Of a DNA stretch of 64,000 nucleotides, positions 3,093-54,867 are shown piece by piece. How positions within the stretch are numbered: the stretch's first letter is position 1; every line of letters starts with the position of its first letter. Both the position numbers and the translations under genes were made by a program. This DNA comes from Enchytraeus crypticus (taxonomy: Eukaryota > Annelida > Clitellata > Enchytraeida > Enchytraeidae): assembly GCA_905160935.1 (NCBI GenBank), contig CAJHZI010000428.1, forward strand, positions 936,001 to 1,000,000, read 5' to 3'. The notes beneath the pieces were generated by a model. It was not told the origin of the DNA and searched no databases. It saw only the letters and a program-made list of their open reading frames with translations.

Positions 3093-3168
3093 ATGTTCTT
3101 CAATATGTTCTGCTCTATGCTGATTTTCTCTTCGCTCGTGTTAATTACACAAACCACCTTTGTGCAGG
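3093..3168 (+). CDS. Exon 1: start codon and signal peptide
   Basis: The ATG opens [20 protein letters not shown], a hydrophobic leader followed by a polar TTFVQ cleavage zone. The exon ends after one base of a Gly codon (phase 1) at a good donor, G|GTAAGA. An AG at 3085-3086 just before GAGAAAATG could be the acceptor of a 5' UTR intron, so the transcription start may lie further upstream. Confidence 0.8.
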
Positions 3169-3326
3169 GTAAGAATTAATATAAATAAGTATATAAATTA
3201 GTTGGTTTAATTAGCTTTATTTATTTCATTGTGTTGTGCGTTGGCATCTGCTGATGCATAATCTGCTAAATATATCCCTGACATTATTGCCTCATGGTAG
3301 AAAATTGATCACTAAATTCTTAACGA

Positions 3327-3361
<35 letters not shown>

Positions 3362-6300
3362 GTTCAGTGACTGCTGGCAGGTCCATGGTATATAACTCCT
3401 CCACTCATCGCTATCTTCGTTTTCATCTTCATATCCACATACGAGTGGATATTTAAATCATTTAACATATTCCTTTTGATATACCATTATTCTTATAACT
3501 GATCTATTTGCTTGATATCATGGATTTCAATTAATTTGACTACACTGTTTATATTGTATAAATGTATGTATTTAAGGTTGCATTGTATTTAGAAATTGCT
3601 ACAAACGAGAAATTGCTTAAACGAATGGAAAAGTCTCAAATAGCGGGTTGATTGATGGATTATTTGATGTAGGATAGCGAGGATTTGAGAAAGTCTATTC
3701 GTATTCCGACCCGAACTAAACTAGGATTCAAAAAGCTGGTAAAGCTAAGGTTAACGTCAGTTTCCTCACTCGAAAGCAATGTCCGTGACGGGCCAGCCCA
3801 GGATTTGAACCCGCACCAAGGGATGATGATGACGATAATGCTGATGAAATGTTTGTATTTTAGGTGTGTGCACAAACTTCCAATGGCCTTGTAACAACGG
3901 GAATTGCATCCCATACTACTCACAATGCGACGAGATAGAGGATTGCAGTGACTATAGCGATGAGTTATCAACAACTTGTTCAGCCGGACAAGGTTCTTCA
4001 GAATTCTGTGCAATTAAATTTGATATGATTTATATAGAAATTGTCAAATCTTTCAGCTAAATGTGCAAACATAGAAGACGTAACTTTAAAGGGAAAGAGA
4101 ACTATGTTTATTTCGATACACTCAAAATATACAGTGACATACACAAACAAGGCCTTCAAAGAGGTCACAAGTAACCTGTCTAGTTGACCACCCCAAAATC
4201 AAAAAAAAATTGAAAAATAACTAGGAAATCGGTATAAACATGCAATGCAAGTAAAAGAAATAACAGTTGATAAAGTTTGAAATAATAGCAACAGGAATTT
4301 AAAAAGAGATTGCTTCAGAGAGTTTGAGAGATTACTTAAAAGGAAAATGTTTGTAGCTGGTTTATATAGAAATTAGCAAATCTCTCAGCTAAAAGTGAAA
4401 GTATATTATATGTTGCTTAAAAGGGCAATGTTTGTACCTGTGCCATAAATTAGAAAATTAACTTAAACCTAAAGTAAGAAATGTCGAAGGTATTTCTGCT
4501 GAAATTTCAAATATATAAAGTATAACATCTTCCTGTTCATAATTCAGAACTCCAGTTATGTTTCATTGAATTATAAACTAATTTTTTAATACTGAAAATT
4601 CTTATAAAATAATACGATTTCTTTCCAATATTTTAATTTGCTCTAGAGACATAAATTTTTAATTTTTGTGAAAAATAGTATAATTGAAGATTTATCTATT
4701 TTTAGGTTACATTGAGAGTGAGTACTTAGTTCTAATGACTCGCACGGATTCATCAGACAATCAGCTCTATCAGATAGAGGTCTCCACTGGAAGGGTTAGA
4801 CGACTAAACAATTCTGTGGGTGTGCCCTACAGCGCTGCCATTGACAAGCAGACTCAGAATGTATACTACGGATCTGATAGTGGCAGGTCCTCCTACGATA
4901 TGAAGGTTTTTGATTGGGCGACAAAAACCAGTTCTGTCGTCTTTGGCGATGTCAACCCGTGTAAGTATATATCAACTCTAAGGCGTCTCTTTATGGACAC
5001 TAGAGTAGTCTCTCACAACCTTCCTCCTTCACCAATCACGATCCATGGCGAGATCATATACATCACCACCCGCAAGACTAAATTTAGTATCTATTAAACT
5101 TAAATCTTTACTATATTGTCTTATTAAATTATACTTATTTCCTATACCTATTTTAGTTTATATTTTATTATTTATCTATTTCTAATGACAAATCCTGAGG
5201 TGATTTGAATCCTCGTGGGTTCGAATCCCGGCCGCGCTGATCTGAGAGTAAAATCTCGTACATTCACTGGACTGGTTACACGGAAAATGGTATAAATTGC
5301 CTAACGGATTAAACATGTGGTTTTAAAAGTGATAGATATCAACATAGTTGATTATTCACTATAATGCGTGTTTACTATTCTTAATTTATTTCGTGTTAAC
5401 CTGTGTCTCAGTGCTTTCCTTGTTGGTGTGTTTCGGGTAATCTTATCATATGTCCTTCCTATTCCAACTTAACCTTTATTTTCATAAGATTTCACTCCAA
5501 GGAGTTTAAATAAGCGGTTAGTAAGCTTTACAGGAAAACCTTCACTTTAGTAAATCAATCAATAAGCATTTAACGTCCGCTTCCTCTCCATAAGGCAATG
5601 TCATGAGCTTCTCTTGCAGACTCTACACAAACAAACATTAGATCAGTTATTAGTTAAATAGATTTATGTATAAATTGGATTTATGGATATTGACAAATTA
5701 TTATAGTTCGCGTCCATAAAGAAGTTTTATGGCCCTTGTTGTGTATGGGTTATTAAGAATAGACAGATCGTTAACTGTTCCTGTCATTCGAGACGATTAA
5801 GCAAGAGGTGGGAAGGCAACGGGAAAACACATCATTAGCTTTATTGATTTTTTATATTTTAGTAAAAACATCAATCTAATTTTTATCTATAAAACAGTTG
5901 TTACATTTTTTGTATTTCGAAATAATTTGTATGTATCAATTTAAATGTAACTAGCGAGGTATCATTATCCTACATGTACCTTATTACTATATCTTGAAGA
6001 GGTATAAATGTGTCTTAAATTAAAACTGAAACTGAAACTGAGCAGTTTAAAGTGAAACCAACATCCATGCCAGGATCTCTCACTTGTATTTCAATATGTT
6101 CAACCATTGGAAAGTTGTGAGAACATCTCAATGTAATTTAATTGTTTGAGAAAAATGAAGAGCTATGGACATTTTATTGCATTATATTTCTCAAGACTTA
6201 CCAGTTATTACCACACTACGTTGCAGATAATTATTCTTCTATCGACGGTTTCGCCTTCAACTCCAATGGAGGGGGATATTTCTATATAAGCATCGGTCGC

Positions 6301-7760
6301 GACATATTGGAATACAACATAGCGGCTCAATCACATCGAGTTATACACAATAATTCCGACCCTTACAATCTAGTGTACGACGAGCAACTCAAGCAAGTAT
6401 CATGTTATTTGCTGTATTGTTATGGTATTGTTATTGTATTGGTATGGTATTGTTGTAGTATTGTTGTAGTATTGTTATAGTATTGTTGTAGTATTGTTGT
6501 CTACAACAATACTATATTGTTATAGTATTGTTATAGTATTGTTGTAGTATTGTTATAGTATTGTTATAGTATTGTTATAGTACTGCTGTAGTATTGTTGT
6601 AGTATTGTTATAGTATTGCTGTAGTATTGCTATAGTATTGTTGTAGTATTGTTATAGTATTGTTATAGTATTGTTGTAGTATTGTTGTAGTATTGTTATA
6701 GTATTGTTATAGTATTGCTGTAGTATTGTTGTAGTATTGTTATAGTATTGCTGTAGTATTGCTATAGTATTGTTGTAGTATTGTTATAGTATTGTTATAG
6801 TATTGTTGTAGTATTGTTATAGTATTGTTATAGTATTGTTGTAGTATTGTTGTAGTATTGTTGTAGTATTGTTATAGTATTGCTGTAGTATTGTTGTAGT
6901 ATTGTTTTAGTATTGTTATAGTATTGTTGTAGTATTGTTATAGTATTGTTGTAGTATTGTTGTAGTATTGTTGTAGTATTGTTATAGTATTGTTATGACA
7001 TTGCTATTGTATTGTTGTAAGTTCAAATTTTATTTAGTTTAATTTTTCATTCACGCTATATTATTATAGTAGGCCTTGTAACAAAGTCTATCTAGCATTA
7101 ATTCTATAGGCCTACTTGAAATTTGTAAAATTTAATACAAATGTCTTGTAGATTACTGAGTCATTATAATTTGAAAATACTATATGCGGGAGGGATAAGG
7201 TGCATTTCGGTAATCCTATAGACCTTTTACAAAAGGTGTCTACTTTAAAAAAATTACCATATATTTTGCATGATAATTTCATGATAAATTAATATTAGCC
7301 TTTTACTGTTACTCTGATTTTTAGGACCGAGATTAATTTAAGCTGTTTGATATTGCAGCAATCTATACTGGTGTGACGTGGGGAGTTATTTACTAGGAAT
7401 CTACAGGATATCTGTTGGAGATGTGATTGGTGATCCAGTGAGTGTGGTGACCGACGTAGATGAACCATATTGTCTTGCAATAGATTTCTCAAGTAAGATT
7501 AAACCGTTCTTTATCTAATATATGTATACTTATATATATATATATGTATGTATATATATATATATTATATATATATATATATATATATCTTATAGCACTG
7601 CCTAGTTATAGGTCCATTGTATATAACGCCTCCACTCATTTCTACCTTCCGTTTTCCTCTTCATGTCCACATACGAGTGGATCTTTAAGTCATCTAACAT
7701 ACCTTTAAATATACCATTATTCTCGAGGGATTCTCCTTATTACGATTACGATGAATATAG

Positions 7761-7827
<67 letters not shown>

Positions 7828-9945
7828 CATATTTGGGTTCATATCCTGGGCGCGTCGTCATTGCTATGTACCTCGAGAGCGGATCAGATTTTAACACCGG
7901 CTAATAATTTCTTAATAATTTCGCTTAATAATTTCTTCATAATTTCTTAATAATTTCTTAATAATTTCTTAATAATTTTGCTTAATAATTTCTTAATAAT
8001 TTCTTAATAATTTCGCTTAATAATTTCTTAATAATTTCTTAATAATTTCTTAATAATTTCTTAATAATTTCTTAATATTTTCTTAATAATTTCTTAATAA
8101 TTTTGCATAATAATTTTTTAATAATTTCTTAATAATATCGCTTAATAATTTCTTAATAATTTTGCTTAATAATTTCTTAATAATTTCTTAATAATTTTTT
8201 CATAATTTCTTAATAATTTAGCTTAATAATTTGTTGCAGTTGGAGTGCTGTATTGGATTGATTCCTATGCTGGCTTGCTGGAATCGATTAATTTGGACGG
8301 ATCAAACAGGCAACGACTGCTAACTCTCCAGCCTGGGCCATACTTCTCTCTAGTAGTAACAGAAAATCATTTCTACTATGCTATAAATGCTGGCAGGTGG
8401 GTTACATAATAGTTCTTGTAATATGTGTCGTATAAGCTAGACATTTATTCATCATCATCATCATCATCCTTCCTTGAATACCAGTTTAACCAGGGTCGGG
8501 ATACAAATAGACTGTCTCAAATCCTCTCTGTCCTACATCATATCAGCAGTCAATCCCATATTTGAGACTTCCATTCGTTTATATTTTTGTAGCAATTTCT
8601 GGAGCCTAGGCGCCCACCAAACGAATGCTTTTCTGACGTTGGTATGGATCTTAATGCTTTAGTCGCCTTCGACGACATGTGCAGTCACCGGTTAGTCAAT
8701 TCTTCAAACAAGTCGGACACAACAAGGGGAAAGTCTACTAAGTTATTAATTTATGAAAAATAATTGTATAATATGTCGTTACGTAGTCAGTGGTAAGATA
8801 AGTTTATCAGACGTTCATTTACGCATGAAAGGTTCAGAAGCTCAACTCGATATATCTTTACAAGTGTTGTCTATGGATTCAATTCTATCATTGCTGCTTT
8901 AAACGAATACCAGTTTAAGACAGAAATAATCCAGTTACGATGTTGACTTAAAGACAACATCAATTTTTAATTAATTTTTCTAGCCATCCTTCCATAATTT
9001 AATTTTTTATTTTCTTTTTATTTTGATTTTTATAAAACATAATAGCTTTGTAATTATGTAGCTCTCAGCTCGCTGTTCATGGGATTGAGCGGAGAGGACT
9101 TGGACGTCATCGTTTTGCTAATCTGAGATTCAGAGCTGATGATCCCACAATAGCAAGCTATATAGTAAACCCGGGTAAAAAGAATTTCTGTAATTTTAAA
9201 AATTTCTCATTCAGAGCACTTGCAAAAGATGGAGATACTTTTAGACAAACTTCTAACAATTAAAGACTATGACTGACATCGAAATTAGTCGGATCGCTCA
9301 TAAATGCAAGCATGAATCACAAATATGTAGGCCTATGCCTATATTGACGGCAGGATATAACTTACCAGTCGGCCGAATTTTACAGATAATTTAAAGAATC
9401 TCGGCCGTACTCGTTTCAACAGAAAATCGTAACATAGTAAGCAATCCAACAATGTCTAAACGATGGTTCGCGAGGCGACATACGCAAAGGAGAACAGTCA
9501 CACATTTGATCCTTGTTTGAAATATATTACTTCGAAGAATTTGGATATAAAATATTTATTTCTAGGCCTACATCTTAAAAATAAAAAGGCAAGCTGCATC
9601 CAATTTAAAACCTAGTTTCATGATTTCCATAAACTCGTTAAAATGTTTTTCCTCCAATTATAATTCTTATAAACTTACTAGACGTTCCTGACATTGCCTT
9701 ATGGCGCGAAACGGAGCGTTAAATTATTATTTATTGATTGATTGATTGACTAGGCTCCTAATGTAGCCTATGTAGGCCTATTTTTTTGTCAAAATGTAGT
9801 ATATCTCGTATTGTACATCGCCAAATAGCCCCATAGTCTCACACTTTCATAAAATGATTACTATAACTTAATTTGAGCCATTAGTGGAAATCATCATCAA
9901 CTACAAAGTTACTAAATTAAATAGTCAATTGTGTTTAACTAATTA

Positions 9946-9996
<51 letters not shown>

Positions 9997-11133: not shown

Positions 11134-11194
<61 letters not shown>

Positions 11195-14100
11195 GTATAG
11201 GTCTCTATGTTTGAATGACGAGAGAGCATTTAAATTATGTTTATTACACAGCAACCTGCATGAAAGACTACAAGCACTGTGCGGGAGCTGGGTGTGTCTA
11301 CATCTATGATATCTGTGACGGTGTTAATAACTGCGCTGATGGGAGCGACGAGATGTCGCCACTTTGTACTAATGGAACTAAAGGTAATCAGTTGAATTCA
11401 ATAAAAGTATTAGTTGTGAATTTTAATTTCTGGTTTAATATTGCCCGAAACATTATTGGGTTCATTTTAATGCGTTATCAGCCGATTGAAATGTTGCTTT
11501 GCCAGAAAGTTGTTTGACAGCGGATTAGTATTTGTAAGATTCAAATCCAGTGTTTCTCCTGTAGATGGCATGCTATCAAGCATGAAACTGACATTAAAAA
11601 TCTTGACTAAAGAAGTACACTTAAAATTATATAATTTTTTCCAATTATTTTATACATGTCTGCTTTAATACTTTTTTCTATACATTATGGCTCAATATAC
11701 AAGTATTAGCCTTAAAATATAAAATTGTTAAATGCTACCATGCAGTTAAATTTTTGTGATAAAAACCAATTAAATGACCTTATAAATACCCCAAGTCATT
11801 CATTCCTCTCGGTGGCTTAAAACCGACCTTGCTTCTTTTGACAAAAATTTGCAATATCATTAACGATAACCTTGCCGTAGTCCTCTGCTGGACTAATAAT
11901 AAACAAAAACAGGATTTTAGGGTATATAGAATTTTTTTCTCAGGGAATGGCGTCCCTGCTGAGTAAATGTTAGTCGAAGCTGAGGAAGGTAAAGGGGGCC
12001 CACCTCGTCAAATGCAGAATCCCCCAAGAATAATGGTTTATCAAAAGCTATGATGTAGATGGCTTAAAGATCTAAGCGTATGTGGACGTGAAGATTAAAA
12101 CGAAAAACAGACTAGAGTGGGGGCGCTTTATACCATGGACCTGCCAGTAGGCAGTGCACTAAGAGAGAGTGAGTGTGAGAGATAGATTGTTAATAGCAGC
12201 CTGGTGGATACTCTTCTCTGAATTTCCTCCTTTTCATTAATTAAACGTATACAAAATGTATACAATACCTTCAGCGTGAAGAACGTCATCTTTTGTCCAA
12301 TATACTTAATCTCTTCTTCGAATATTTTGCTAAATACTTACCTCGACATTTAAAAGATATAAGGCAACCTTTGAAACCCATAAATATTCTTATAGGTAAA
12401 GAATCTATCCGGTAATGATTTACTCATAGTTGCGCTGATATCGTCTCAAAAGTGATTTCAAGTAAGAGGTTTTTAGCAACGCTATGAATGTACTATTACA
12501 TTTTTTGCTTTAGCATTACTAACTTCTTTTTTGTCCATGTTTTTTAGTAATAAAATTTAAATAGAAAATCAAATTTATCGTTCTTAGGCTAAGAAATGCA
12601 TAAGCCACCTCCGTCCTATACATAGTCCTACAACAATAGGCTATATCTTGGTAAAATTATAACTCATTAAGAGCCTCCCGAAACTCTAAATACAAACTTT
12701 GAGCCTTTTAGTGCTACATACAATTTGATCTTTTACATTTTTGAGACAGTCTAATATTTCTTGCATTGTAGAATATTTGACAGAAAACTATTTGCTTGGG
12801 ATGGATATAAATCACAGAGCCCTGTATCAAATAGATCCAGAAACGGGAGATGTGGTTCACCTGAACGGTGTATCGATGGTTATACCAAACCAAATATCAG
12901 TTGACCCTGACAATTGCTTCGTATACTTTGGAGATGAAGAGCATAGAACTGTGCAGAGATATGACATAGAGAGCAAAACTCAAGATATTTTTTACCAGGA
13001 TTTTGGAGGTAATAAATATTTCTTAACTTAACTTGATTATACTGATTCAGGAACTTGCAAAGACTTGTAACACCAGTCAAGTCGTAATTTCATACCATAA
13101 TACATAAAGACGGTAAACAAATACAAACCTTTACAAGTTGATAGGCTTCAAAAAAGAACTTTGGAAAAACTAAACACTCAGCAACACATCACACACACAT
13201 ACGTATCTCACATATAAATCTACAGACATGTACACAACTGTGCAGACATACGCATACATGCAAATAGGTTAACTAAGGCGATAATATTTAAATAATTATT
13301 TCATAGTGCCTCGGAAATGTATGAACTACTATTTCAGTGCAAGTGACTGAAATGCGTACCGAGACGCAAGTAGAACTACAATCATGAAGGTCTACAACAC
13401 TTTATGGAATAAGCAATTTTGACTAACGTTTTAAAATAAGACAATTGTACAATAAAACAATTGTGTGCTCTTCATTTAATTAGACTAGGACTATTATTAG
13501 GACTATTACTATATTAATTAGACTAGGACTATTATTAGGACTATTACTATATTAATTAGACTAGGACTATTATTAGGACTATTACTATATTAATTAGACT
13601 AGGACTATTATTAGGACTATTACTATATTAATTAGACTAGGACTATTATTAGGACTATTACTATATTAATTAGACTAGGACTATTATTATTGACTATTTC
13701 TAATCTAGCAAATGACGTCTTTCATTTAATAACTTTAAATAATATGTAATAGTCAAATTGTACTAGTAAACTTTATTATAATCCATAGCGATTCATCGTT
13801 AGAAACTGGGCCACTATCAAATATTTGAAGTACATGTAAAACTATTAAGCAGTTGCTTTTGTAAAATGTTAGAATTTGTTTGTACTAGTCATTAACATTG
13901 ATTTTTTTAAAATTAAACCTTAGACAGTTCTTGTAAGCTACACGTTCATAAATGTCCATTTTCTAGTTTGGTTTTGTCAAAGCATTATTTACATTATTTA
14001 GTTGGCGAGATTCAGACTACTTGGTTTAGATATTCGTCAATATATGAAGTTGAGCTCTATCGGCTTCGGTTAATACTTTGCGGGTGACCATTTTGGAATA

Positions 14101-16096
14101 CCGAGTGTTGATAACTTCGAATGAAAAAAATCGTCAGCGTGTTGGAGGTTGTTCTTAAATCTGCGCCAGCTGCAATTGATGAGCCATAAAATGGAAACGA
14201 TTACTTATAACCATGGAGAGAAAGGAGGAAATGGACCTTAAACAAGCATCTGTGCTTTCGGACCCAGTGTGCCGTTATGTTATGCTTTCATCAGCGAATA
14301 AGACAGAACTAGGTTAAGCAAACGCTTTGATTTTGTGCTTTTTGACTTGATATTAGTAACTACGCATCTATTGAAAAATCTCCATTAGACTTTGGCATTT
14401 TATTCTTATATTCTATAGCTAAATTATTAATAATGGATTATATTATACTGTATAAATTTTCCAATAAAATCAAAATAAACCTAATTCAATTACCGTAAAT
14501 TCATTATAATTTTAGGTACCTACTTGAAAGCTATGACTATCGATACTGAAGGAGGATTTCTGTATTTGGCAACAACTGACCCCTTTTTAATTACGGAGGT
14601 CAGTCTTAGTGACAGTTCGGTTAAACGTGCAGTTATACAAGGAGGATACTACAGTCCTTGCTGTCAATTGGCTTTTGATATGGATAACAAGTAAGTATAG
14701 CGAACGACCTTACTGTTTTTTTTAATTTGGGTCAATAATGAAGACAAGTATAAAACATTGATTCAGCGATGGTGAACTCTATGCCATTATAATTAGGTGT
14801 AGTGTGTCTTTAGAATATTGAGAGAAGCGCAAATAAACGAAAAGAAATAGGCCTACATGTTTGTATTCGTTTATTTTATATATTGCAGATACTTTTTAAG
14901 ACCATATATTTATGTTAATCTTTTCTTCTTCTTCAGTGCACTGCCAAGTGACAGGTTCAAGGTACATATTCATACTCAAAGTCTGTTTTCTCGCTCCATA
15001 AGAGCACTCCTTAGATCAACAAGTTAACCCCTTCACAAAGTCTATGCCTTATCCATAACTTATGTAGCCTATAGCTTGGGAAAATATGGCTTCTGAGGTG
15101 GTTTCCCATTGCCTTCCTCAGTTTGGTGGATTAATTACCATTTAATCCTGGGGGAAAATATTTCATGGTGAGGTGGGTCCCCTCTTGCCATCCTCAGCTC
15201 CAGCCTTTAGTCGCATCTTCGTACACGCGGCAGACTGTTTGCGGTTGCCCAATTCTGCAGTGGTCCAACCACACCCGAGCACAACACGGGCATTATGTTA
15301 ATAATGCTATATTAATATGAATAGTATATTAATATTAATATATTATTGTGTTCGTGTAATTACAATAATATTATTATATTACTATTTAGATATATTAATG
15401 TTAATATTAATATTTATACTTATATTAATATTAATATTAATATTAATATCAAAATACTGTCAATTACTACAAGATCAATGTAGGTTATATCTTTTTATTT
15501 CAATATACACCAATTGTTGTTAGTTGATGCGTAAATTTATTAAATTTTAGTTGCAACGATATGAAATTTTTCAGTATCCTCATGCTTGTTATTCTACAGC
15601 GCAGCCATTGGTAGGCCTATATAAATTCGCTGTCAGATGTAATATATTATAATTTTAGTAGACATAATAGTTACTTAGTTAGACCAATATAAAATTTATA
15701 TTTATAATTTACATTATATATTAAATGTTAGCTTATAAAAGTATTTAGAAATGTGAAACAATTCCCTTTTCCATAAAACATTACAGATAATATTCGTTTC
15801 TGTTATTTGCCAATCGTAGTAGTAGTGGTAGTAGTATTTTGAATATCATTATTATTATTATTATTATTATTTTATTTTTATTTTTATAATATTTAATTGT
15901 ACCCGCGGTGTAAAGTACCTGGGGTTTGATAAAAACGATTCAAGCAATACGTGCTGAATCGCCGCCCGGCTATTCGAGGTCATCAATTGGCTTAAAAGAA
16001 TTATTGAAGCAGACTGCATTAAATCTTTGCAAAGTCATGGAAAGCCTTTTCCAAAGAAAAGATGTCTCTCGCTTATCGCCGGTTTGCTCTTTGGTA

Positions 16097-16133
<37 letters not shown>

Positions 16134-18544
16134 TTATATTGTGGTTTATTTCTTTTTCATTTGCATAATAGATTAATGCAAAGAATAATTATCACTTAGT
16201 CCTGCCAACGCCCTGATAATAAAATATCACATGACCTATAGATATAATTAGCCTAATTCTAACTTCAGAATTTCTATTCAGGTATTCGCTAACTCATATT
16301 TCTTATTATGCATTTTTTGCAGAATACTCTATTGGCCGGATGTTAAGTCCAACGCTATCCATTCCATATCCATGGAACCAAATTCGTCAATCATCACTGT
16401 AATAGATGGTTATAGAATGAGAGGACTGGCGATAGATTTCAATAGTAAGTAATCAAATGAAACGGTTTTTGTCATTATTGTGTTTTATCTGAGGTTCTAA
16501 ATTAGCCTTATTCAGAAAAATTGCGAAAATGAAAATGAAAGAAAAATTGCTAAAATGAAAAGATAAATTGTTAGGAGTCAAACAAGCATATTGCTTGTGG
16601 ATTTAATATGCAACCAAGAACGCCGATTCATTTTGAATAGCACAATTTCTTCTAAAGTGAAAAAATAAATAAATAGATTAAGGAAATTATTTACTTTCTG
16701 TTTAAACATAAAACTTCAGAACCTCACATACTCCGCTGATTATTTCCGTTCATTTTTTTATGTTTAATTATCTTATAACGTAAATATTTGTTTAAAATAT
16801 TTTACTTTAGTAGCCTATATGTGTACGATTTAGTCGCCATTTAGTGTTATAATTGAAATCAAAAATCTAGCCGTGGGTTACCCATAATTTCCGCAAAAAT
16901 GTCTTTGACATATTTACGGCTGATAATGAATTCAACATATAATAACACTCAATGATTGCCATTTTCTTACAGCTAAGCAAATATTTTTCACGGACCTCCG
17001 CTCCAGGTCTATGCTGACTTGTGATATCAATGGAAACGATTCTCAAGAAATCTACACAACGCAATTAGCACTGGATGATACACGAATAGCTTTGGATTCT
17101 AAATACATTTACATGTCCAACTTTGCCGCAAGGTTTGTCTTGATTTTAAATATCTTTCACTCTCAATGTACTACCTACTTTCAGATCCATGGTACAAAAC
17201 GCCTCTATTCTTCTTTCATTTTCTTCCCTTTCCCACTACGTATCCACATACGAGTGGATATTTAAATCATCCATTACATTCTTTCGATATACCATTCAAT
17301 ATCAAAATAATTTTGATTAAACATTTTTAGATATGTTATTGAGACAACGCAATCAATATATTGTCAGTTCAGTTCGAGAAACTGAAATCAAGAAATGATT
17401 ATACCTACATGTTAAAGTGACATTGTGTGAATTGAACAATCGCAAAAGGCTACATAGCAAACTTTATCTAAATAATGATGTCATTTTTATTGGAGAAATT
17501 TGACGTAATATCTCTAGTAGTTTACAAGTCTACCTGTATCACATATCACATATATTTTCGTTTCGTTAAGAAAATAATAATTGCAGAGAGATTTCACAAG
17601 AGCCTATGAAATATAACAAAACATAATTACAAAATATACATGGGGTTAAGGCATACTAATATGATTATTGTTGTTTAAAAACAGTTTAAATTTTTCAGCG
17701 GTGTACAAGCGTCAATTATGCCTAAGCTTATTACCTGAAAGATATTATCCGATAGGAATTGATAGAATTTGGCTTTATCCGCGAGATAAATCAAAATCAG
17801 ATTTTTTTTATTTTATGAAGCTTTCTATTGTCAAAATTAACTTGAGTCTGTAACATAATATTTTCAAGAATTCTAAACATGTGCGCGCAGTTTGCTCTCT
17901 GCTATTAAAATAAAGCCACCTGAGCTGTATGAATTACAGATGCTGAGCGATAACTCTGTTTTATTCACACGCGTTGATAGCCACCCGAACTTCAGAAGAT
18001 ACCATCCCAATTATAGTAGCTGAATTCACCTGAGATATATAGCGAAAATGGGCCCAAAAAATTCAAAAGTGACATTCTGAGACGCTTACGTGAGTAGTGA
18101 CAGATACATTTCCATTTTAATATTGGGCATTAGTGTCATTGGAGTTAGACATTTTTTCTCTCGAGGAGCTAAATTGAACGTTTTTTGCTAGTGCTCACCT
18201 TCTTTTAGCAACGTTTCTTTTGGTTTGATGAGAATGTTGTTTTAGTGGGATAAGAGCAGCTCCAGCAATTGGTCAAAATTGATTAAAACAAACTGTACTT
18301 AATTGCTTTCAATCAGTTGATAGATAGATGGATGGATAGATAGATAGATAGATATATAGATAGATAGATAGATAGATAGATGGATGGATGGATGGATGGA
18401 TGGATGGATGGATGGATGGATGGATGGATGGATGGAGGATGGATGGATGGATGGATGGATGGATGGATGGATGGATGGATGGATGGATGGATGGATGGAT
18501 GGATGGATGGATGGATGGATGGATGGATGGATGGATAGATAGAT

Positions 18545-18612
<68 letters not shown>

Positions 18613-21600
18613 TTAGATAGATAGTTAGATAGATAGATAGATAGATAGATAGAATAGAATAGATAATATGTTTATTTCTCAGCAAAGACACACAATGCAT
18701 ATCGCGAGAAAAATTGGTCGTCAGTGTATCTTATCTAGCTGACTACCGTGATAATTATGTTACAAACAGTTCTTAATAAAGCTAGTATTAGTTCATAGCT
18801 CATAATACATATAGAGTTGAACTTAAAATTTACATGTATAAGCAGAGCTAAATGACTCATAAAAATAAAAAAACAAATACCGTGAAACTTACGTAACTTA
18901 GATGAAGATGACAAGGAGAGATTATGAAAAGCTAACTCGTTGCTTTGGAAATCAGCCTCTTAGCACGTATTTAAGAAGCTTCCAGACGGTTTCTCTCGTC
19001 AGCATTGGTAAACCTAAAAAATTTCTCTTAAGTATTGAGTATTTTACTAAGCAATGATGGAAGCCAGTCAAAAATATTATAACATAACATTTACAGAGTC
19101 AGGAAGCAATTATATGCTTGTTTAAGACTCATCAGAATGCTCTTAAAATCTAAATTAACCTAAAATGAATCTAAATGAACTAAAATGCTCTTAACAAAAA
19201 CCAATTTATATTAATCAAATCATACAGACTTCATGTCAACATGTCAAATTTATACATAGCCTCTGTATAACACTGAACATGCAATTAGATTCTAATTTAC
19301 ATGTTCTTATGTTTATCATATTTATTTTTAAAAGCATTCACTGATTCTGCTTCCACAACTTCGTTTGCCAAACTATTCCAAGCATTTATAACTCTCTGAC
19401 AAAAGAAAAATTTCCTTAAATCTAGTCTACTTCTAAATTTATTAAGGTTATAAATATATCCCCCTGTGTTTCTGTTGTTTGATAAATTAAACCAAATACT
19501 ATGGTTAACTTTGCTGAAGCCTTTGAGTATCTTAAGAACTTCTATTAAATCTCCTCTAGTTCTTCTCTCACTTAAAGAGGTTAATCCTACGAATTTTAAT
19601 CTATTCTCATAACTAAGTTTTTGACAGTTAAATACCAGCCTTGTTGCTCTGGCTTGTACCCTTTCTAATTTATCGATATCTTTCTTTGGATATGGGCACC
19701 AAGCCTGAACGCAGTATTCAAGTATGGGCCGCACAAGAGCCTTATATAGCCTTACCACAATATCTTTATTTCTACATGCAATTGTTCCTTTAATCATTCT
19801 AATACACAATTAGCACTGTTTACAACTTTATTACAATTTTCACTTAAAAGACTCCTAAATCCCTCTCACTGTTTGTGGATTATAGTTCCAGACGGTTTCT
19901 CTCGTCAGCATTGGTAAACCTAAAATATTGTTCTTAGGTATTGAGTTTTTTACTAAGCAATGATGGAAGCTAGTCAAAAATAATATTGAAGTCATTACTT
20001 TCCTCAATCGAAACTTCAAAAGCGATGTCAGAGACGATCGAGCCCAGGATTTGAATCCCACACATACTGATTCGCAGTCGAATATCTTACCGACATCATC
20101 ACTGGCACTATAACTATCAATAAGATAGTGATAGTGTTTTTATATACTGTCGTAGTATCTGAAAGAGTTCATTCGGTTGGTAACTCCTCCGTTCTAATTA
20201 GTACATTAAACGGCACATTAATGTAATGATGTTCTGTTTAATGTGCTAATTAATGTACTAATTAGTACATTAATGAGCACATTAAACGGCACATTAATGT
20301 AATGATGTACTCGAAGCTTTGGAAATGTGAGATGTGAACGTATCCACTGTTTGTATGTTTTCAGTTTTATTACACGACTCGATAGAACAAACAGCTACGC
20401 AGCATACGAGTATCCTGGGCAAGCTTTCGCTTTTTTAACTGGACTTGTTTACGTCTCGCAAGATATGTGTGAGTATTGTAAAATGTTGAGTATGATTAAC
20501 ATGTCTGGTATGTGTTATTATAGCAATGATGAGCACGTTTAATATGTAAAATATATGCTAATGTGACTGCTATGTTTAATATATTCATATGTCGATATAT
20601 TAAAATGTTTGTGTGCTTAATAAATGTGAACGAATGAAAGCCCCGAATAGGGGAATAGCTGGTGGTGTAGTGTAGGACACAAAGGATTTCAGACAATCTG
20701 TTTTTGTAAAAGGACCCTTGTGAAACTTGGTCTAAAGGGAGGATTTTCATGATGATGAAGATGATGATGATGATGGTGATGATGATGATGATGATGAGTA
20801 TATTTAATATATAAAATATGTGTCAATATAACATTGATAAGTGGTTTAATATATAAAATATGTGTTAGTAGAACAATGATGTGAATGTGTTTAATATACT
20901 GTATATATTATGTTTGCATGTCAATTAAGAGTGTGTTTAGTATAAAAGGTTGGCTATATATTAAATCTAATTATTATCGTCAGTTTCTTCACTTGAAATC
21001 TCTAACGGGAGAGCCCAGGATTTGAACCCAGCAAATACGGATACGCGGTTGAATATCTTAACGAAAATTCCACTGAAATTGACTGAAACCAGTGGAATTT
21101 TTAATGTAAATATCAATAGGATATAAATCGATGCTAAATGTATTTTGTTAATATGGATTCATAGCAAAATGTTTGAAGAGGTCGAACATCGAATCGACAG
21201 CAGAGACAACAACAACTACACCTTTACCAAGAACAGCAACCGAAACAACAGCAATGCTAAGTTCTGTAGAGGATTTTACAACTCAAACGTCAACAATGAC
21301 ACCTCAACCAGGTGGATCAACAGATCAATCAGGTGGATCAACAATTCAATCAGTTGGATCAACAATTCAATCAGGTGTATCAACAATCCAATCAGGTGGA
21401 TCAACATATCAATCAGGTGGCTCAACAATTCAATCAGGTGGATCAACAATTCAATCAGGTGGATCTACAACTAAATCAGGTGGATCAACAACTAAACCAG
21501 GTGGATCAACAATTCAATCAGGTGGATCAACAATTCAATCAGGTGGATCAACAATTCAATCAGGTGGATCTACAACTAAATCAGGTGGATCAACAACTAA

Positions 21601-22306
21601 ACCAGGTGGATCAACAATTCAATCAGGTGGATCAACAATTCAATCAGGTGGATCTACAACTAAATCAGGTGGATCAACAACTAAATCTGGTGGATCTACA
21701 ACTAAATCAGGTGGATCAACAACTAAATCAGGTGGATCAACAATTCATTCAGGTGGATCAACAATTCAATCTGGTGGATCAACAATTCAATCTGGTGGAT
21801 CTACAATTCAATCAGGTGGATCAACAATTCAATCTGATGGATTAACAACACAAGCAGGTAAACCTAATATTCGTTTTCATGAATGCAATCATAAGTTTAT
21901 TCCTGTTGAATACGAAAATACTGTTACGGAATCAAAATCTTCACTTATTGAGTCAACATTTATATTTGATTGGCATATAATTTTATTCGAGATTTCTCGA
22001 GAAGTACAGCTTGATCACAGCATTAGAATGTTATTATATATTATGTTACTGTTTTAAGCATTGCAATACATTGAGCAAATATTTATGAATCCCTATGAGC
22101 AAAGACTAGACGTTGCATAACATCTAGTAGCACGTTGAGTCAGGAAGCAGAGATGCTTGTTTAATACCCATTTCTTCCTTCCTCTCCATAATGATTAGTA
22201 ATCTTTGCCTCTTGATGGCTCATCAATTGCAAACCGGTGCCGATTTAAGATTTTAAGATAAGATTTCCAACACACACACTATATATATACAGTATATATA
22301 TATATA

Positions 22307-22358
<52 letters not shown>

Positions 22359-22557
22359 AACTAATTTATTCATTTATATTTATATACTGACTCGTCTATG
22401 TTAGCTAAAGAACGATGTTGCTTATGTCAACCTCTCCGCAGATCTGGAGCAGTACAATGCAGAAGAATTGAAGAAGATAACGATCATTCTGTTCGCAGCT
22501 GTGGTTGCAGCTTCTATCATTCTCTTCACTCTCAGCTGTTGTTGCTGCCTTAAATAG
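3093..22557 (+). CDS. LDLa/YWTD-propeller/mucin single-pass membrane protein, complete 15-exon gene
   Basis: Seen: coding exons 3093-3168, 3864-3992, 4706-4960, 6227-6392, 7359-7492, 8240-8396, 9062-9174, 11252-11383, 12772-13008, 14516-14690, 16323-16444, 16973-17132, 20365-20468, 21165-21857 and 22442-22557 join in frame (2769 nt, 922 residues). Order: signal peptide about 1-23; LDLa 28-64; propeller 69-343; LDLa 346-382; propeller 388-653; mucin-like stalk 654-884 with heptads 703-877; membrane span about 897-916; tail CCCCLK. Known: LDLa modules bind Ca2+ and ligands, and YWTD propellers mediate protein contacts in LDL receptor, LRP and nidogen. Inference: a type I cell-surface receptor or adhesion protein. 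The two LDLa-propeller halves look like an internal duplication, since exon phases repeat (LDLa exon 1-1, then 1, 1-2, 2-1, 1-2, 2-1). Odd: no EGF-like module follows either propeller, and one donor is GC. Ligand unknown. A tandem paralogue begins by 45.66 kb. Confidence 0.88.
3328..3485 (-). mobile_element. (CT)n tract and LINE family C 3' end, in intron 1
   Basis: A (CT)n run precedes GGCAGGTCCATGGTATATAA and ATCCACATACGAGTGGATAT, the conserved end of family C. On the element strand the tail is therefore (GA)n. Confidence 0.7.
3600..3722 (+). mobile_element. LINE family B 3' fragment, in intron 1
   Basis: Reverse-complement relative of 8452-8580 and 43560-43680 (AGTCTATTCGTATTCC). Those copies end in (ATG)n. 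Here the (ATG)n tail (about 3820-3846) is separated from the body by a SINE, which suggests insertion into the 3' end. Confidence 0.6.
3731..3818 (-). mobile_element. SINE family S, 3' part, nested in LINE family B
   Basis: Tail AGCTAAGGTTAACGTCAG, body and box B (GGTTCAAATCC on the element strand) are present; the head is missing. It lies about 45 bp from the exon 2 acceptor. Confidence 0.72.
3864..3992 (+). CDS. Exon 2: first LDLa domain
   Basis: The acceptor is TTTGTATTTTAG. The exon encodes all six LDLa cysteines in standard spacing, with the acidic Ca2+ cage in the segment [13 protein letters not shown]. It is symmetric (phase 1-1), as LDLa exons usually are. The donor G|GTTCTT is weak; a second phase-1 option (T|GTGCAA at about 4009) would add five residues. 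A SINE fragment lies just upstream of the acceptor. Confidence 0.85.
4085..4195 (-). mobile_element. LINE family H, 3' end fragment
   Basis: Shares AGAGAACTATGTTTATTTCG and the CTGTCTAGTTGACCACC block with the 10.06-kb copy, which continues into RT coding sequence. Confidence 0.55.
4706..4960 (+). CDS. Exon 3: propeller 1, blades 1-2
   Basis: The acceptor is TCTATTTTTAG and the donor T|GTAAGT; both ends are phase 1 and the exon is 85 codons. It aligns with exon 9 (79 codons): [20 protein letters not shown] corresponds to [20 protein letters not shown], followed by a VYYGSD / VYFGDE strand. These are the first two beta-propeller blades. Confidence 0.85.
5195..5260 (+). repeat. tRNA-like fragment with perfect B box
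   Basis: GTGGGTTCGAATCCCGGC is a textbook T-arm/B box. No A box or acceptor stem can be found around it, so it is probably a SINE remnant, not a tRNA gene. Confidence 0.45.
5552..5625 (+). mobile_element. Dispersed repeat family K
   Basis: Shares ATTTAACG.CCG and CCATAAGGCAATGTCA with the reverse complement of 9680-9755. The (AATC)n side is the likely 3' end. Confidence 0.5.
6227..6392 (+). CDS. Exon 4: propeller 1, blade 3, with a GC splice donor
   Basis: Phase 1 in, phase 2 out. It encodes a blade ([20 protein letters not shown]...) matching exon 10 ([16 protein letters not shown]). The only join that keeps exon 5 open and aligned to its paralogue is AA|GCAAGT, a GC-AG intron. The nearby GT at 6397 would exit in phase 0 and run into a stop in exon 5. 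An 11-bp minisatellite begins a few bases after the donor. Confidence 0.78.
6403..7018 (+). repeat. 11-bp minisatellite in intron 4
   Basis: More than 50 tandem copies of GTATTGTTRTA with T/C and A/G variants. The array starts about ten bases after the GC donor of exon 4, so its expansion may affect that weak site (inference). Confidence 0.9.
7359..7492 (+). CDS. Exon 5: propeller 1, blade 4
   Basis: Acceptor GATATTGCAG, donor A|GTAAGA, phase 2 in and 1 out. Begins [18 protein letters not shown], a YWTD-class strand matching [18 protein letters not shown] of exon 11, and ends LAIDFS as exon 11 ends LAIDFN. Confidence 0.85.
7518..7590. repeat. (TA)n microsatellite
   Basis: TA/TG-interrupted dinucleotide run at the end of a LINE family C fragment. 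Confidence 0.9.
7592..7725 (-). mobile_element. LINE family C, 3' end fragment, in intron 5
   Basis: Contains AGCACTGCCTAGTTATAGGT, CCACTCATTTCTACCTTCCG and ATCCACATACGAGTGGATC-type sequence of family C, flanked by TA runs as at 28.1 kb. Confidence 0.7.
7757..7826. repeat. (TA)n microsatellite
   Basis: About 30 TA units. The YIYIYI open frames it creates are not genes. Confidence 0.9.
7897..8232 (+). repeat. 11-bp minisatellite in intron 5
   Basis: About 28 units of TTAATAATTTC, some with an extra GC, ending a few bases before the exon 6 acceptor. With intron 4 this makes two unrelated 11-bp arrays in adjacent introns. Confidence 0.88.
8240..8396 (+). CDS. Exon 6: propeller 1, blade 5, canonical LDLR class B repeat
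   Basis: Contains [20 protein letters not shown] followed by RQRLL, the clearest LDL-receptor class B (YWTD) signature in the gene. Phase 1 in, phase 2 out; the donor is G|GTGGGT. An 11-bp minisatellite (TTAATAATTTC units) runs almost into its acceptor. Confidence 0.9.
8449..8640 (-). mobile_element. LINE family B 3' end, in intron 6
   Basis: (ATC)n on the plus strand, i.e. an (ATG)n 3' tail on the element strand, followed by GGGTCGGGATACAAATAGAC and ATCATATCAGCAGTCAATCC, closely matching 43.56 kb. Confidence 0.68.
9062..9174 (+). CDS. Exon 7: propeller 1, blade 6
   Basis: Phase 2 in, phase 1 out, 113 nt. Encodes [20 protein letters not shown], the closing blade. The paralogous exon at 49350-49462 has exactly the same length and ends. 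Confidence 0.82.
9680..9755 (-). mobile_element. Dispersed repeat family K, second copy
   Basis: TGACATTGCCTTATGGCGCG... then AACGGAGCGTTAAAT and a GATT repeat: the reverse complement of the 5.55-kb copy. Confidence 0.5.
9949..9994. repeat. (TA)n microsatellite
   Basis: Uninterrupted TA run in intron 7. Confidence 0.9.
10060..10885 (-). mobile_element. Non-LTR retrotransposon (family H), RT C-terminal region and 3' end
   Basis: Two open segments encode a typical LINE C-terminus: [11 protein letters not shown], then [35 protein letters not shown]. The 3' end has a GA-rich tail and the motif CTGTGTTTATTGAAGTACAC on the plus strand. Frames are broken and the N-terminal half is absent. It is inserted in intron 7 of the receptor gene in antisense. 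Confidence 0.75.
10887..11045 (+). mobile_element. SINE family M fragment
   Basis: CCTCTTGAATGAGAG, TTTTTCTTCCAAGG and CCGACCTTAATGTTCCATTT match the reverse complement of 34540-34727, where tRNA-like promoter boxes are visible. Confidence 0.6.
11139..11192. repeat. (TA)n microsatellite
   Basis: TA run about 60 bp before the exon 8 acceptor. Confidence 0.9.
11252..11383 (+). CDS. Exon 8: second LDLa domain
   Basis: Symmetric phase 1-1 exon of 44 codons with six cysteines and the Ca2+ cage [13 protein letters not shown]. Acceptor TTATTACACAG and donor G|GTAATC. Its first 74 bases differ at one position from the duplicate LDLa exon at 49916, far closer than the neighbouring exons are. Confidence 0.88.
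11940..12182 (+). mobile_element. LINE family C composite 3' end, in intron 8
   Basis: GGGAATGGCGTCCCTGCTGA ... GCTGAGGAAGG ... TATACCATGGACCTGCCAGT, AGGCAGTGCACTAAGAGAGA. The same two-part arrangement recurs at 22810-23035. Confidence 0.68.
12772..13008 (+). CDS. Exon 9: propeller 2, blades 1-2
   Basis: 79 codons, phase 1-1, acceptor TTGCATTGTAG, donor G|GTAATA. Encodes [20 protein letters not shown] with a second strand [19 protein letters not shown]. The paralogous exon 55294-55530 has the same 237 nt. Confidence 0.88.
13483..13690 (+). repeat. 38-bp minisatellite in intron 9
   Basis: Almost perfect 38-bp units (starts at 13483, 13521, 13559, 13597, 13635, 13673) of GACTAGGACTATTATTAGG plus ACTATTACTATATTAATTA. 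Near-identity indicates recent expansion. Confidence 0.92.
14516..14690 (+). CDS. Exon 10: propeller 2, blade 3
   Basis: Acceptor TAATTTTAG, donor AACAA|GTAAGT, phase 1 in and 2 out. Encodes [20 protein letters not shown] and SLSDSSVKR. The paralogue (56589-56775) shares EGGFLY and SLSDSS and is four codons longer. Confidence 0.85.
14935..15293 (-). mobile_element. Repeat family D, long copy, in intron 10
   Basis: Runs from CAGTGCACTGCCAAGTGACA (3' end on the element strand) to CACCCGAGCACAACACGGG (5' end). It is the most complete copy in the receptor gene. On the plus strand it is open through [15 protein letters not shown] and [13 protein letters not shown], as are three other copies; this is antisense to the inferred element. 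Confidence 0.75.
15838..16135 (+). mobile_element. (ATT)n tracts around dispersed repeat family L
   Basis: Between two ATT runs lies GTGTAAAGTACCTGGGGTTT ... GCCGCCCGGCTATTCGAGGT ... GGCTTAAAAGAA. The reverse complement occurs at 26062-26164, also ending in ATT repeats, so the trinucleotide tail belongs to the element. Confidence 0.65.
16323..16444 (+). CDS. Exon 11: propeller 2, blade 4
   Basis: 122 nt, phase 2-1. [20 protein letters not shown] is a YWTD-type strand. The paralogous exon 59484-59605 has the same length and begins MLYWPN. Donor A|GTAAGT. Confidence 0.86.
16973..17132 (+). CDS. Exon 12: propeller 2, blade 5
   Basis: Phase 1-2. Encodes [20 protein letters not shown] and ends YMSNFAAR. 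The paralogue at the window end begins NQIFFSDS and ends YNFAAR. Donor G|GTTTGT. Confidence 0.85.
17165..17295 (-). mobile_element. LINE family C 3' end, in intron 12
   Basis: TTTCAGATCCATGGTACAAA and ATCCACATACGAGTGGATAT define the copy. All introns hosting family C keep normal splice sites. Confidence 0.65.
18316..18660. repeat. GATA/GATG tetranucleotide microsatellite
   Basis: A pure (GATG)n core is flanked by (GATA)n. The SIHP/SIYL open frame on the reverse strand is only the repeat read as protein. Confidence 0.93.
18660..18745 (-). mobile_element. LINE family H 3' end fragment
   Basis: ATATGTTTATTTCTCAGCAA and TATCTTATCTAGCTGACTAC match the family H 3' end. Confidence 0.5.
19068..19215. 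repeat. Dispersed repeat N
   Basis: ACAGAGTCAGGAAGCAATTA followed by TGCTTGTTTAAGACTCATCA recurs at 37995-38045 and weakly at 22135. Family unknown. Confidence 0.5.
19290..19825 (-). mobile_element. CR1-like LINE, RT C-terminal domain, open fragment
   Basis: A 170-codon open frame reads [51 protein letters not shown] and ends [11 protein letters not shown], the classic thumb/C-terminal region of CR1-like reverse transcriptases. It stays open without breaks but is truncated at its 5' side. Sits antisense in intron 12 of the receptor gene. Confidence 0.85.
19984..20108 (-). mobile_element. SINE family S, in intron 12
   Basis: Body AGCGATGTCAGAGACGATCG, box B (GGATTTGAATCCC on the plus strand) and head ATCTTACCGACATCATCACT. 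Confidence 0.75.
20236..20287. repeat. 52-bp palindrome upstream of exon 13
   Basis: GTTTAATGTGCTAATTAATG... pairs with ...CATTAATGAGCACATTAAAC around the centre TACTAATTAGTA. A 28-bp direct repeat (AAACGGCACATTAATGTAAT...) flanks it on both sides. Confidence 0.85.
20365..20468 (+). CDS. Exon 13: propeller 2, blade 6
   Basis: Acceptor GTATGTTTTCAG, donor T|GTGAGT, phase 2 in and 1 out. Encodes [20 protein letters not shown] and a last strand GLVYVS that closes the second propeller. It is shorter than its counterpart exon 7 (104 against 113 nt). Confidence 0.78.
20750..20797. repeat. (GAT)n microsatellite
   Basis: GAT/GAA trinucleotide run in intron 13, probably a LINE tail remnant. Confidence 0.8.
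20977..21101 (-). mobile_element. SINE family S with palindromic head, in intron 13
   Basis: Body, box B (GGATTTGAACCC on the plus strand) and head are followed by a 12-bp inverted repeat, AAAATTCCACTG / CAGTGGAATTTT. Ends about 60 bp before the exon 14 acceptor. Confidence 0.72.
21165..21857 (+). CDS. Exon 14: mucin-like Ser/Thr heptad stalk
   Basis: Phase 1-1, 231 codons. A TTTTT-rich start leads into about 25 copies of a 7-residue unit, GGSTIQS alternating with GGSTTKS/P (21-bp DNA unit, 21311-21835), then DGLTTQAG at the donor G|GTAAAC. Dense Ser/Thr implies an O-glycosylated spacer. The acceptor at 21163-21164 (GGATTCATAG) is preferred; AG at 21199-21200 would keep the same frame. Array length is likely to vary between alleles. 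Confidence 0.82.
22280..22356. repeat. (TA)n microsatellite in intron 14
   Basis: Long TA run about 85 bp before the transmembrane exon. Confidence 0.9.
22442..22557 (+). CDS. Exon 15: transmembrane segment, Cys-rich tail and stop
   Basis: Acceptor CAACCTCTCCGCAG, phase 1. Encodes a short acidic linker ([12 protein letters not shown]), a 20-residue hydrophobic span [20 protein letters not shown], then CCCCLK and TAG. Clustered juxtamembrane cysteines are typical S-acylation sites (inference). There is almost no cytoplasmic domain, so any signalling would need a partner. No AATAAA was seen close downstream. Confidence 0.85.
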
Positions 22558-46989: not shown

Positions 46990-47060
<71 letters not shown>

Positions 47061-49112: not shown

Positions 49113-49166
<54 letters not shown>

Positions 49167-54798: not shown

Positions 54799-54841
<43 letters not shown>

Positions 54842-54867
54842 ATATATTCATGTATATATACATATAT

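What the first reader, a model, noticed from the sequence alone, without database searches (positions are those of the whole stretch)
3093..22557. Complete membrane receptor with LDLa-propeller twice, mucin stalk, and no EGF modules
The sequence supports a full 15-exon chain with consistent phases. In LDLR and LRP proteins YWTD propellers are flanked by EGF-like domains; here each propeller is preceded by a single LDLa and followed by none. The half-repeat exon pattern suggests an LDLa-propeller unit duplicated inside the gene. I do not recognise a described family with this exact order.
Basis: partly seen in the sequence, partly recalled or inferred. Interest (0 to 1): 0.75.

Follow-up and report, generated by a model that had tools for sequence, protein, structure and literature searches.

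The report
EGF-less twin-propeller surface protein family
A potworm gene makes a cell-surface protein built from parts of the cholesterol receptor put together in an unusual way, and it is one of a family of similar copies whose job is not yet known.

Summary
Confirmed, and larger than reported. The 15-exon gene (3093-22557, +) encodes 922 aa: signal peptide, LDLa, YWTD-type propeller, LDLa, second propeller, Ser/Thr/Gly repeat stalk, hydrophobic anchor, 7-residue Cys-rich tail; no EGF, no NPxY. The host is almost certainly the potworm Enchytraeus crypticus (mitochondrial contig of exactly the published 15,205 bp, enchytraeid-like COX1). The genome holds 29 matches to exon 8 (second LDLa) and 28 to exon 9 on 7 contigs; 26 stand as pairs in the right order and strand. 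Three distant paralogs, rebuilt exon by exon, keep all twelve ectodomain exons; the two whose stalks were read have different repeats. A metagenome protein of unnamed source (P0033) carries propeller-LDLa-propeller-stalk-membrane segment in one open frame; AlphaFold gives its second propeller six blades, superposing on LDLR, LRP6 and nidogen propellers. A tree groups the first propellers of both sources, so most simply the unit was doubled once, before the sources split. This is a new variant of the LDL-receptor superfamily: an expanded, EGF-less, nearly tailless family, most likely for surface recognition or adhesion. That function is inferred; no expression or ligand data were available.

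The parts
3093..3168 (+). Exon 1: signal peptide ([26 protein letters not shown])
   Evidence: Hydrophobic start, donor GTAAGA in phase 1. Candidate signal exons with a phase-1 donor lie 0.8-0.9 kb upstream of exon 2 in C178, C321 and C324.
3864..3992 (+). Exon 2: LDLa module 1
   Evidence: PF00057 above cut-off; phase 1-1; donor GTTCTT is weak. An exon of the same length, 129, in C178, C321, C324.
4706..4960 (+). Exon 3: propeller 1, first part
   Evidence: Phases 1-1; found in C178, C321, C324, C335b, C306b.
6227..6392 (+). Exon 4: propeller 1, ends in a GC donor (GCAAGT)
   Evidence: The GC donor keeps the frame; C178, C321 and C324 have GTAAxx donors at the matching place.
7359..7492 (+). 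Exon 5: propeller 1 (YWCD blade)
   Evidence: Phases 2-1.
8240..8396 (+). Exon 6: propeller 1 (YWID blade, PF00058 at residues 257-281)
   Evidence: Phases 1-2.
9062..9174 (+). Exon 7: propeller 1, last part
   Evidence: Phases 2-1.
11252..11383 (+). Exon 8: LDLa module 2, strongly conserved in the family
   Evidence: PF00057; 29 exon-8-type matches in the genome, this one included; DNA conserved while flanking introns are not.
12772..13008 (+). Exon 9: propeller 2, first part
   Evidence: Phases 1-1 as exon 3; 28 exon-9-type matches in the genome, this one included.
14516..14690 (+). Exon 10: propeller 2
   Evidence: Phases 1-2 as exon 4.
16323..16444 (+). Exon 11: propeller 2 (YWPD blade)
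   Evidence: Phases 2-1 as exon 5.
16973..17132 (+). Exon 12: propeller 2
   Evidence: Phases 1-2 as exon 6.
20365..20468 (+). Exon 13: propeller 2, last part
   Evidence: Phases 2-1 as exon 7.
21165..21857 (+). Exon 14: Ser/Thr/Gly stalk; 21-nt unit coding GGSTIQS, 26.5 copies
   Evidence: TRF array 21304-21859; S+T+G are 153 of 232 residues. Stalks of C178 and C321 use other units.
22442..22557 (+). Exon 15: hydrophobic anchor and Cys-rich tail (CCCCLK), stop
   Evidence: Hydropathy peak at 897-915. Similar exon in C178 and the second window copy and in C321.
45661..63993 (+). Part of a second, incomplete copy (exons 6-12; exons 13 and 15 lie beyond the window on the same contig)
   Evidence: Exon-by-exon matches. 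Between 23 and 45 kb no exon 2, 3 or 5 match at E below 0.05 and one exon-4 match at E 0.048 that looks like chance; exon 8 runs into a stop.

Best explanation
The gene is a complete member of a lineage-expanded family of cell-surface proteins in Enchytraeus crypticus. The ectodomain is two LDLa + six-bladed YWTD-type propeller units that arose by internal duplication. It is lifted off the membrane by an O-glycosylatable repeat stalk and anchored by a single hydrophobic segment with almost no cytosolic tail. Most likely mechanism: the propellers bind partners outside the cell, in trans (adhesion, recognition of other cells or microbes) or as a co-receptor; the small Ca2+-type LDLa modules act mainly as spacers that take the place of EGF modules; the stalk sets the reach; any signalling goes through another protein. 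SHOWN by sequence: gene model, domains, copies, conservation, lack of EGF and NPxY. INFERRED: O-glycosylation, membrane topology, recognition or adhesion role, LDLa as spacer.
Against: No transcript, protein or ligand was seen. The only transcript-like support is P0033, whose contig could also be an intronless gene. The second-propeller group in the tree has weak support (53/11). P0033 lacks the first LDLa, so the exact order is shown only within one genome. The structure model is of P0033, not of the window protein; its first blade of propeller 1 has low confidence, and two-propeller chains align only with about 20 A rmsd, so the arrangement of the two propellers is not known. The paralog models were built by a script that accepted splice sites only in the window gene's phase. 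The anchor could be a GPI signal. The pair C178/C321 shows no sign of diversifying selection, which weakens an arms-race reading.
Confidence: 0.6

Rival explanations
1. An endocytic lipoprotein or vitellogenin receptor: a reduced LDL receptor that carries cargo into cells.
For: LDLa, propeller, sugar-rich stalk and membrane segment come in the LDLR order; the closest solved chains are LRP2, LRP4, LRP6, VLDLR, LDLR. The E. crypticus genome paper lists an expanded vitellogenin family of 10 genes (passages of PMC8460440).
Against: No NPxY and a tail of 7 residues; no EGF; one LDLa per unit and not a cluster; the tryptophan that in ligand-binding LDLa modules holds a lysine (recalled) is S and D here (read). 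Many divergent copies do not suit a housekeeping uptake receptor.
Confidence: 0.08
2. A mainly structural glycocalyx or cuticle mucin: the stalk does the work (barrier, lubrication) and the propellers are only a cap or a matrix-binding foot.
For: Fast-changing tandem repeats rich in S, T and G; nidogen's propeller, a matrix binder, is among the closest folds.
Against: The ectodomain is under purifying selection (dN/dS 0.27) and conserved over the distance to P0033 while the stalk changes; an inert cap would not need two complete units.
Confidence: 0.2
3. An immune or self/non-self recognition family, with clustered copies giving a repertoire.
For: Many copies, clustered on 5 of the 7 contigs (C294 and C324 have one each); divergent copies; at least one broken copy; differing stalks; no signalling tail.
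Against: No population data and no expression data; the one pair that could be tested has dN/dS of 0.14-0.33 in every domain.
Confidence: 0.25
4. A false chain: exons of different genes or dead copies joined by the reader.
For: One weak donor (exon 2) and one GC donor (exon 4). A neighbouring copy in the window is broken.
Against: The same twelve exons in order in three paralogs; P0033 has the joined order in one frame.
Confidence: 0.02

Closest known systems
LDLR core family (LDLR, VLDLR, LRP8, LRP1, LRP1B, LRP2)
   Same: LDLa modules, six-bladed YWTD propeller, type I layout; LDLR, VLDLR and LRP8 also have an O-glycosylated stretch before the membrane (PMC8469001, passages).
   Different: No EGF modules, one LDLa per unit and not a cluster, no NPxY, nearly no tail; the propellers form their own clade against the 9 others tested.
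LRP5/LRP6
   Same: Tandem propellers, no NPxY (PMC8469001); the two-propeller LRP6 chain 8ffe is the first Foldseek match of P0033.
   Different: LRP5/6 have EGF with the propellers and their LDLa modules after them, and a long signalling tail (recalled).
P0033, 809-aa protein of unnamed source on a 3322-base JGI contig
   Same: Colinear over 569 columns: propeller, LDLa, propeller, Ser/Gly/Pro repeat stalk, membrane segment.
   Different: No LDLa before the first propeller; a longer Gly/Tyr-rich tail; 28-30% identity; organism unknown.
P0006, uncharacterized protein of the sea urchin Diadema setosum
   Same: Its last part reads as propeller-LDLa-propeller without EGF in between (the middle propeller is read by eye and is very divergent in the tree).
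   Different: An EGF pair stands after its first propeller; no stalk or membrane segment seen in the 912 aa; its propellers fall outside the family.
Sevenless / ROS1
   Same: YWTD-type propellers without EGF neighbours in a membrane protein (fold matches; domain layout recalled).
   Different: FN3 domains and a tyrosine kinase; no LDLa (recalled).

Membership tests
LDLR core family | LDLa (LDLRA) modules | tested here: met
   Two, PF00057 E 3.4e-13 over the protein; the core family has clusters, here one per unit.
LDLR core family | Six-bladed YWTD propeller | tested here: met
   PF00058 and SGL above cut-off; profile matches to LRP and LDLR chains; six blades in propeller 2 of the model of the relative P0033. 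The window protein itself was not folded.
LDLR core family | EGF-like modules around the propeller | tested here: not met
   No Pfam EGF in the protein or in introns 1, 2, 7, 13; no 40-residue stretch with 5 or more Cys away from the LDLa modules.
LDLR core family | Cytosolic NPxY motif | tested here: not met
   No NPxY in 922 aa; tail 7 residues.
LDLR core family | Binding and uptake of lipoprotein ligands | not testable with these tools
   Needs cells and protein.
Distant LDLR relatives (PMC8469001 figure legend) | At least one core extracellular domain type | tested here: met
   LDLa and propeller. In this wide sense it belongs to the superfamily.
LRP5/LRP6 | EGF and propeller cluster followed by LDLa | tested here: not met
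   An LDLa precedes each propeller, no EGF.
ROS1/Sevenless | FN3 domains and tyrosine kinase with the propellers (recalled) | tested here: not met
   Neither is among the Pfam matches of the protein.
The family proposed here | LDLa-propeller-LDLa-propeller with exon phases 1-1,1-1,1-2,2-1,1-2,2-1 twice | tested here: met
   Window gene, C178, C321, C324. In the paralogs only sites of this phase were allowed; 32 of 36 acceptors and 30 of 36 donors fell exactly where the alignment predicts.
The family proposed here | Repeat stalk and terminal hydrophobic segment in other members | tested here: met
   C178 and C321: stalk frames and hydrophobic exon. P0033 by reading. Not looked for in C324.

The most novel reading that the evidence does not exclude
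A clitellate worm lineage took an LDL-receptor-type propeller, dropped the EGF modules and the endocytic tail, doubled the LDLa-propeller unit, put it on a fast-changing mucin stalk and multiplied the gene to more than twenty-five copies, mostly clustered. They form an undescribed cell-surface recognition repertoire (microbes, gametes or own tissue) in a worm used as a soil model.
Probability: 0.3. Interest if true: 0.75.

Novelty: new variant of a known kind. Interest (0 to 1): 0.5.

Why it matters
EGF modules and YWTD propellers are described as one working cluster in the LDL-receptor family (PMC8469001, passages). A whole family in which LDLa stands where EGF is usual shows that the propeller can be built into surface proteins without EGF, and gives a natural test of what the EGF modules are for. 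A multi-copy, divergent, nearly tailless surface family is also a candidate recognition system in a worm that is already a soil-test model.

Tried and rejected
Rejected: a hidden EGF exon between units or before the stalk. Three-frame Pfam scans of window introns 1, 2, 7 and 13 found none, while the same scan found the LDLa of exon 2, a module of like size. The same holds for C178: intron 7, the stretch between exons 13 and 15, and the first 2.4 kb; its repeat array gave eleven matches to unrelated families. Other introns were not scanned. A positive control on ordinary LRP pieces of the same genome failed: nine frames of L004, L008, L002 on + and nine of L004, L005, L001 on - showed propeller repeats in some frames but no EGF, presumably because the 3-kb pieces lie inside propellers. 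So the scan's power to see EGF here is shown only by its finding LDLa.

Rejected: an odd genetic code. COX1 reads well with TGA = Trp and AGR = Ser, the usual invertebrate code (judged by eye).

Led nowhere: one long open frame looked like an intronless retrocopy; it was a run of N. Literature: eight text searches listed no paper on this architecture, judged by titles and the starts of abstracts; two found no paper, and the listings of 43, 63, 82 and 83 were cut short. The E. crypticus genome paper (passages only) has no occurrence of 'lipoprotein', 'LDL' or 'mucin' in its main text; it mentions expanded groups of unknown function, and whether one is this family could not be checked. Protein searches: 32 of 6195 candidates and 47 of 6315 passed E 0.001; by their listed domains and scores only P0033 is colinear over nearly the whole query (six others from the two lists were read in full: P0002, P0005, P0006, P0010, P0029; P0037, P0043, P0069: eight in all). 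Both searches are limited by shared words and length, so relatives with fragmentary gene models could be missed. No other eukaryote genome was held.

Full report
THE OBSERVATION. With each boundary placed at a splice site, the exons 3093-3168, 3864-3992, 4706-4960, 6227-6392, 7359-7492, 8240-8396, 9062-9174, 11252-11383, 12772-13008, 14516-14690, 16323-16444, 16973-17132, 20365-20468, 21165-21857 and 22442-22557 give one open frame of 922 residues. Thirteen introns are GT-AG and one, after exon 4, is GC-AG with the donor GCAAGT. The donor of exon 2 (GTTCTT) is weak.

DOMAINS. Pfam finds LDLa (E 3.4e-13 for the protein, 2 stretches), SGL (2 stretches) and one LDLb stretch above cut-off. Against the PDB by sequence the best chains are LRP2, LRP4, LRP6, VLDLR and LDLR; with a profile of four family members (A1) the matches become LRP2 E 5.8e-118, LRP4 7.1e-66, LRP6 1.1e-34, LDLR 1e-26 and nidogen 1.6e-12. 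The YWTD motif is much worn: strict YWxD occurs at 212, 258 and 528 only. Exon 1 codes a hydrophobic signal peptide and exon 15 a hydrophobic segment with its peak at 897-915, followed by the tail SCCCCLK. The stalk exon holds a 21-base unit, 26.5 copies, coding GGSTIQS; S, T and G are 153 of its 232 residues.

NO EGF, NO NPxY. Pfam reports no EGF domain in the protein, nor in three frames of introns 1, 2, 7 and 13, while the same scan does report the LDLa of exon 2; the other introns were not scanned. No stretch of 40 residues away from the two LDLa modules has 5 cysteines, so an EGF module (six Cys in 30-40 residues) cannot hide in the protein. NPxY does not occur. My attempt at a positive control on LRP genes of the same genome was uninformative.

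THE INTERNAL DUPLICATION. Units E2-E7 and E8-E13 are 26% identical (E 2e-20). Their junction phases are the same (1-1, 1-1, 1-2, 2-1, 1-2, 2-1); in the alignment the junctions fall 0, 2, 0, 0, 1 and 9 columns apart.

THE HOST. The window is part of a genome of 524,188,772 bases in 802 contigs. The contig with COX1 has 15,205 bases, and the COX1 is 95% identical to entries named Lumbriculus variegatus, Mesenchytraeus cf. pedatus and Enchytraeidae (where only the 7999 candidates sharing most words were scored). The published Enchytraeus crypticus genome has 525,192,231 bases and a mitochondrial genome of 15,205 bp (PMC8460440, passages). The equal length makes E. crypticus almost certain; I did not compare the sequences themselves.

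A FAMILY. A search of the own genome with the ectodomain gave 70 matches (70 of 299 candidates scored). A search with exons 8-9 gave 59 matches from 129 candidates, all scored. By my count of its rows, 29 are exon-8-type and 28 exon-9-type, on contigs C335, C306, C294, C324, C242, C178 and C321. Of these, 26 stand as pairs, exon 8 before exon 9 on one strand within 7 kb; three exon-8 rows and two exon-9 rows, all on C242, have no partner, and some rows there are weak (E near 1e-4). Per contig the pairs are C335 4, C306 6, C242 5, C178 5, C321 4, C294 1, C324 1. The two remaining rows (C800, C578) are weak and were left out as probably other LDLa proteins. The counts include this gene and the broken copy beside it; how many copies are intact I do not know.

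PARALOG MODELS. Three were rebuilt: C178 and C321 and C324. In each, the twelve exons E2-E13 are present in order and the joined ectodomain has no stop. The script allowed only splice sites in the window gene's phase, so phase agreement is partly built in; but 32 of 36 acceptors and 30 of 36 donors lie exactly where the alignment predicts, the others 3 or 6 bases off. A candidate signal-peptide exon with a phase-1 donor lies 0.8-0.9 kb upstream in each. C335b (exons 3-11) and C306b (exons 3-10) are partial because the fetched stretches end; in C306b some boundaries chosen by the script (exons 3, 5, 8) are doubtful, and neither was used in the tree. Stalks differ: GGSTIQS here, GGSTNQP in C178, MGSTNPSGQS in C321; C324's was not looked for. 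Hydrophobic exons with Cys-rich ends occur in C178, C321 and the second window copy, where the frame runs on past the cysteines.

SELECTION. Between C178 and C321 (74.5% identical) dN/dS is 0.27 over the ectodomain: LDLa1 0.14, propeller 1 0.33, LDLa2 0.20, propeller 2 0.24. The propellers of the other pairs tested (window gene, C178 and C321 with each other or with C335b) are saturated at synonymous sites. Single exons of the window gene against its second copy give 0.29-0.34 where a value could be had. So the ectodomain is kept, and I see no sign of diversifying selection in what could be tested.

A RELATIVE ELSEWHERE. The profile search returned P0033, 809 aa from a 3322-base JGI contig, E 2.3e-103, 93% of the query covered; the next hit is an LRP2-like protein at 1e-35. 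Profile comparison aligns 569 columns in one piece, probability 100%. It reads signal peptide, propeller, LDLa, propeller, GPSGPSTQGG-type stalk, membrane segment and a Gly/Tyr-rich tail; it lacks the first LDLa. One open frame for the whole order is what a spliced transcript would look like, though an intronless gene is not excluded.

TREE. With 10 family propellers and 9 others (LRP, VLDLR-like, Diadema), the family is one side of a branch (100/100). First propellers of the worm and of P0033 group together (96/93); second propellers group with weak support (53/11). The simplest reading is one duplication before the two sources split. Whether the LDLa was doubled with it is supported by exon phases in the worm but not by P0033.

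HOW IT PROBABLY WORKS. A tail of 7 residues without NPxY speaks against a self-sufficient endocytic or signalling receptor. Two propellers on a stalk suit binding outside the cell: adhesion, recognition or a co-receptor role. The LDLa modules keep the acidic SDE end typical for Ca2+ binding, but the tryptophan that grips ligand lysines in LDLR-type modules (recalled) is S in module 1 and D in module 2, so I read them as structural spacers. In C178, C321 and the second window copy G-x-S-N-E/D stands just before the hydrophobic stretch, and in C178 and C321 the protein ends soon after it, so a GPI signal is possible in place of a helix; P0033, with its longer tail, looks like a true transmembrane protein.

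WHAT IS KNOWN. The review PMC8469001 (passages) defines LDLR core members by LDLRA clusters, EGF-like modules, YWTD propellers, a membrane domain and NPxY, and lets distant members share at least one extracellular domain. This family meets the wide definition and fails the core one. The nearest annotated case I saw is the Diadema protein P0006, which reads propeller-LDLa-propeller at its end but has EGF modules before. Eight text searches listed no paper on this architecture (listings only, four of them cut short).

VERDICT. Real, complete and part of an expanded family for which I found no description; a new variant of a known kind. Interest 0.5, held down because function, expression and population variation are unknown and because the building blocks are familiar.

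Noticed in passing
window 45661-63993, going on to about C335:1007.7k: A second copy of the gene (exons 6-13 and 15) lacks credible exons 2-5, and its exon 8 runs into a stop after a frame break; probably a dying copy.
   Followed up: partly
window 11252-11383 and exon 8 of 13 other loci: Exon 8 is unusually conserved at DNA level (window against C335b: dS 0.48 while the propellers are saturated), and the similarity stops at the exon edges. Exon 13 of the second window copy is also closer (dS 0.36) than its neighbour exon 12 (1.8). Exon-wise gene conversion or a constraint on the coding DNA could explain it.
   Followed up: partly
window 6393-7358 (intron 4): A GC-AG intron; it holds a long array of TATTGTTGTAG-like repeats (read).
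   Followed up: no
window about 18310-18660: A long GATA/GGAT tetranucleotide array inside intron 12 (read).
   Followed up: no
window 19297-19809, 52261-53319, 61497-62684 (- strand): Fragments that read like reverse transcriptases of LINE-type elements, judged by eye from the ORF list.
   Followed up: no
G000 contigs C361, C424, C796, C373, C166: Broken COX1 pieces on other contigs (C166 below the cut-off), presumably nuclear copies of mitochondrial DNA.
   Followed up: no
C306:1178001-1198000 (L052-L053), exons 3-10: A further paralog whose exon 9 is two residues shorter in the PETGD loop; only partly modelled.
   Followed up: partly
P0006 (Diadema setosum): A sea urchin protein that seems to end in propeller-LDLa-propeller without EGF between; possibly an independent case of LDLa standing where EGF is usual.
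   Followed up: partly
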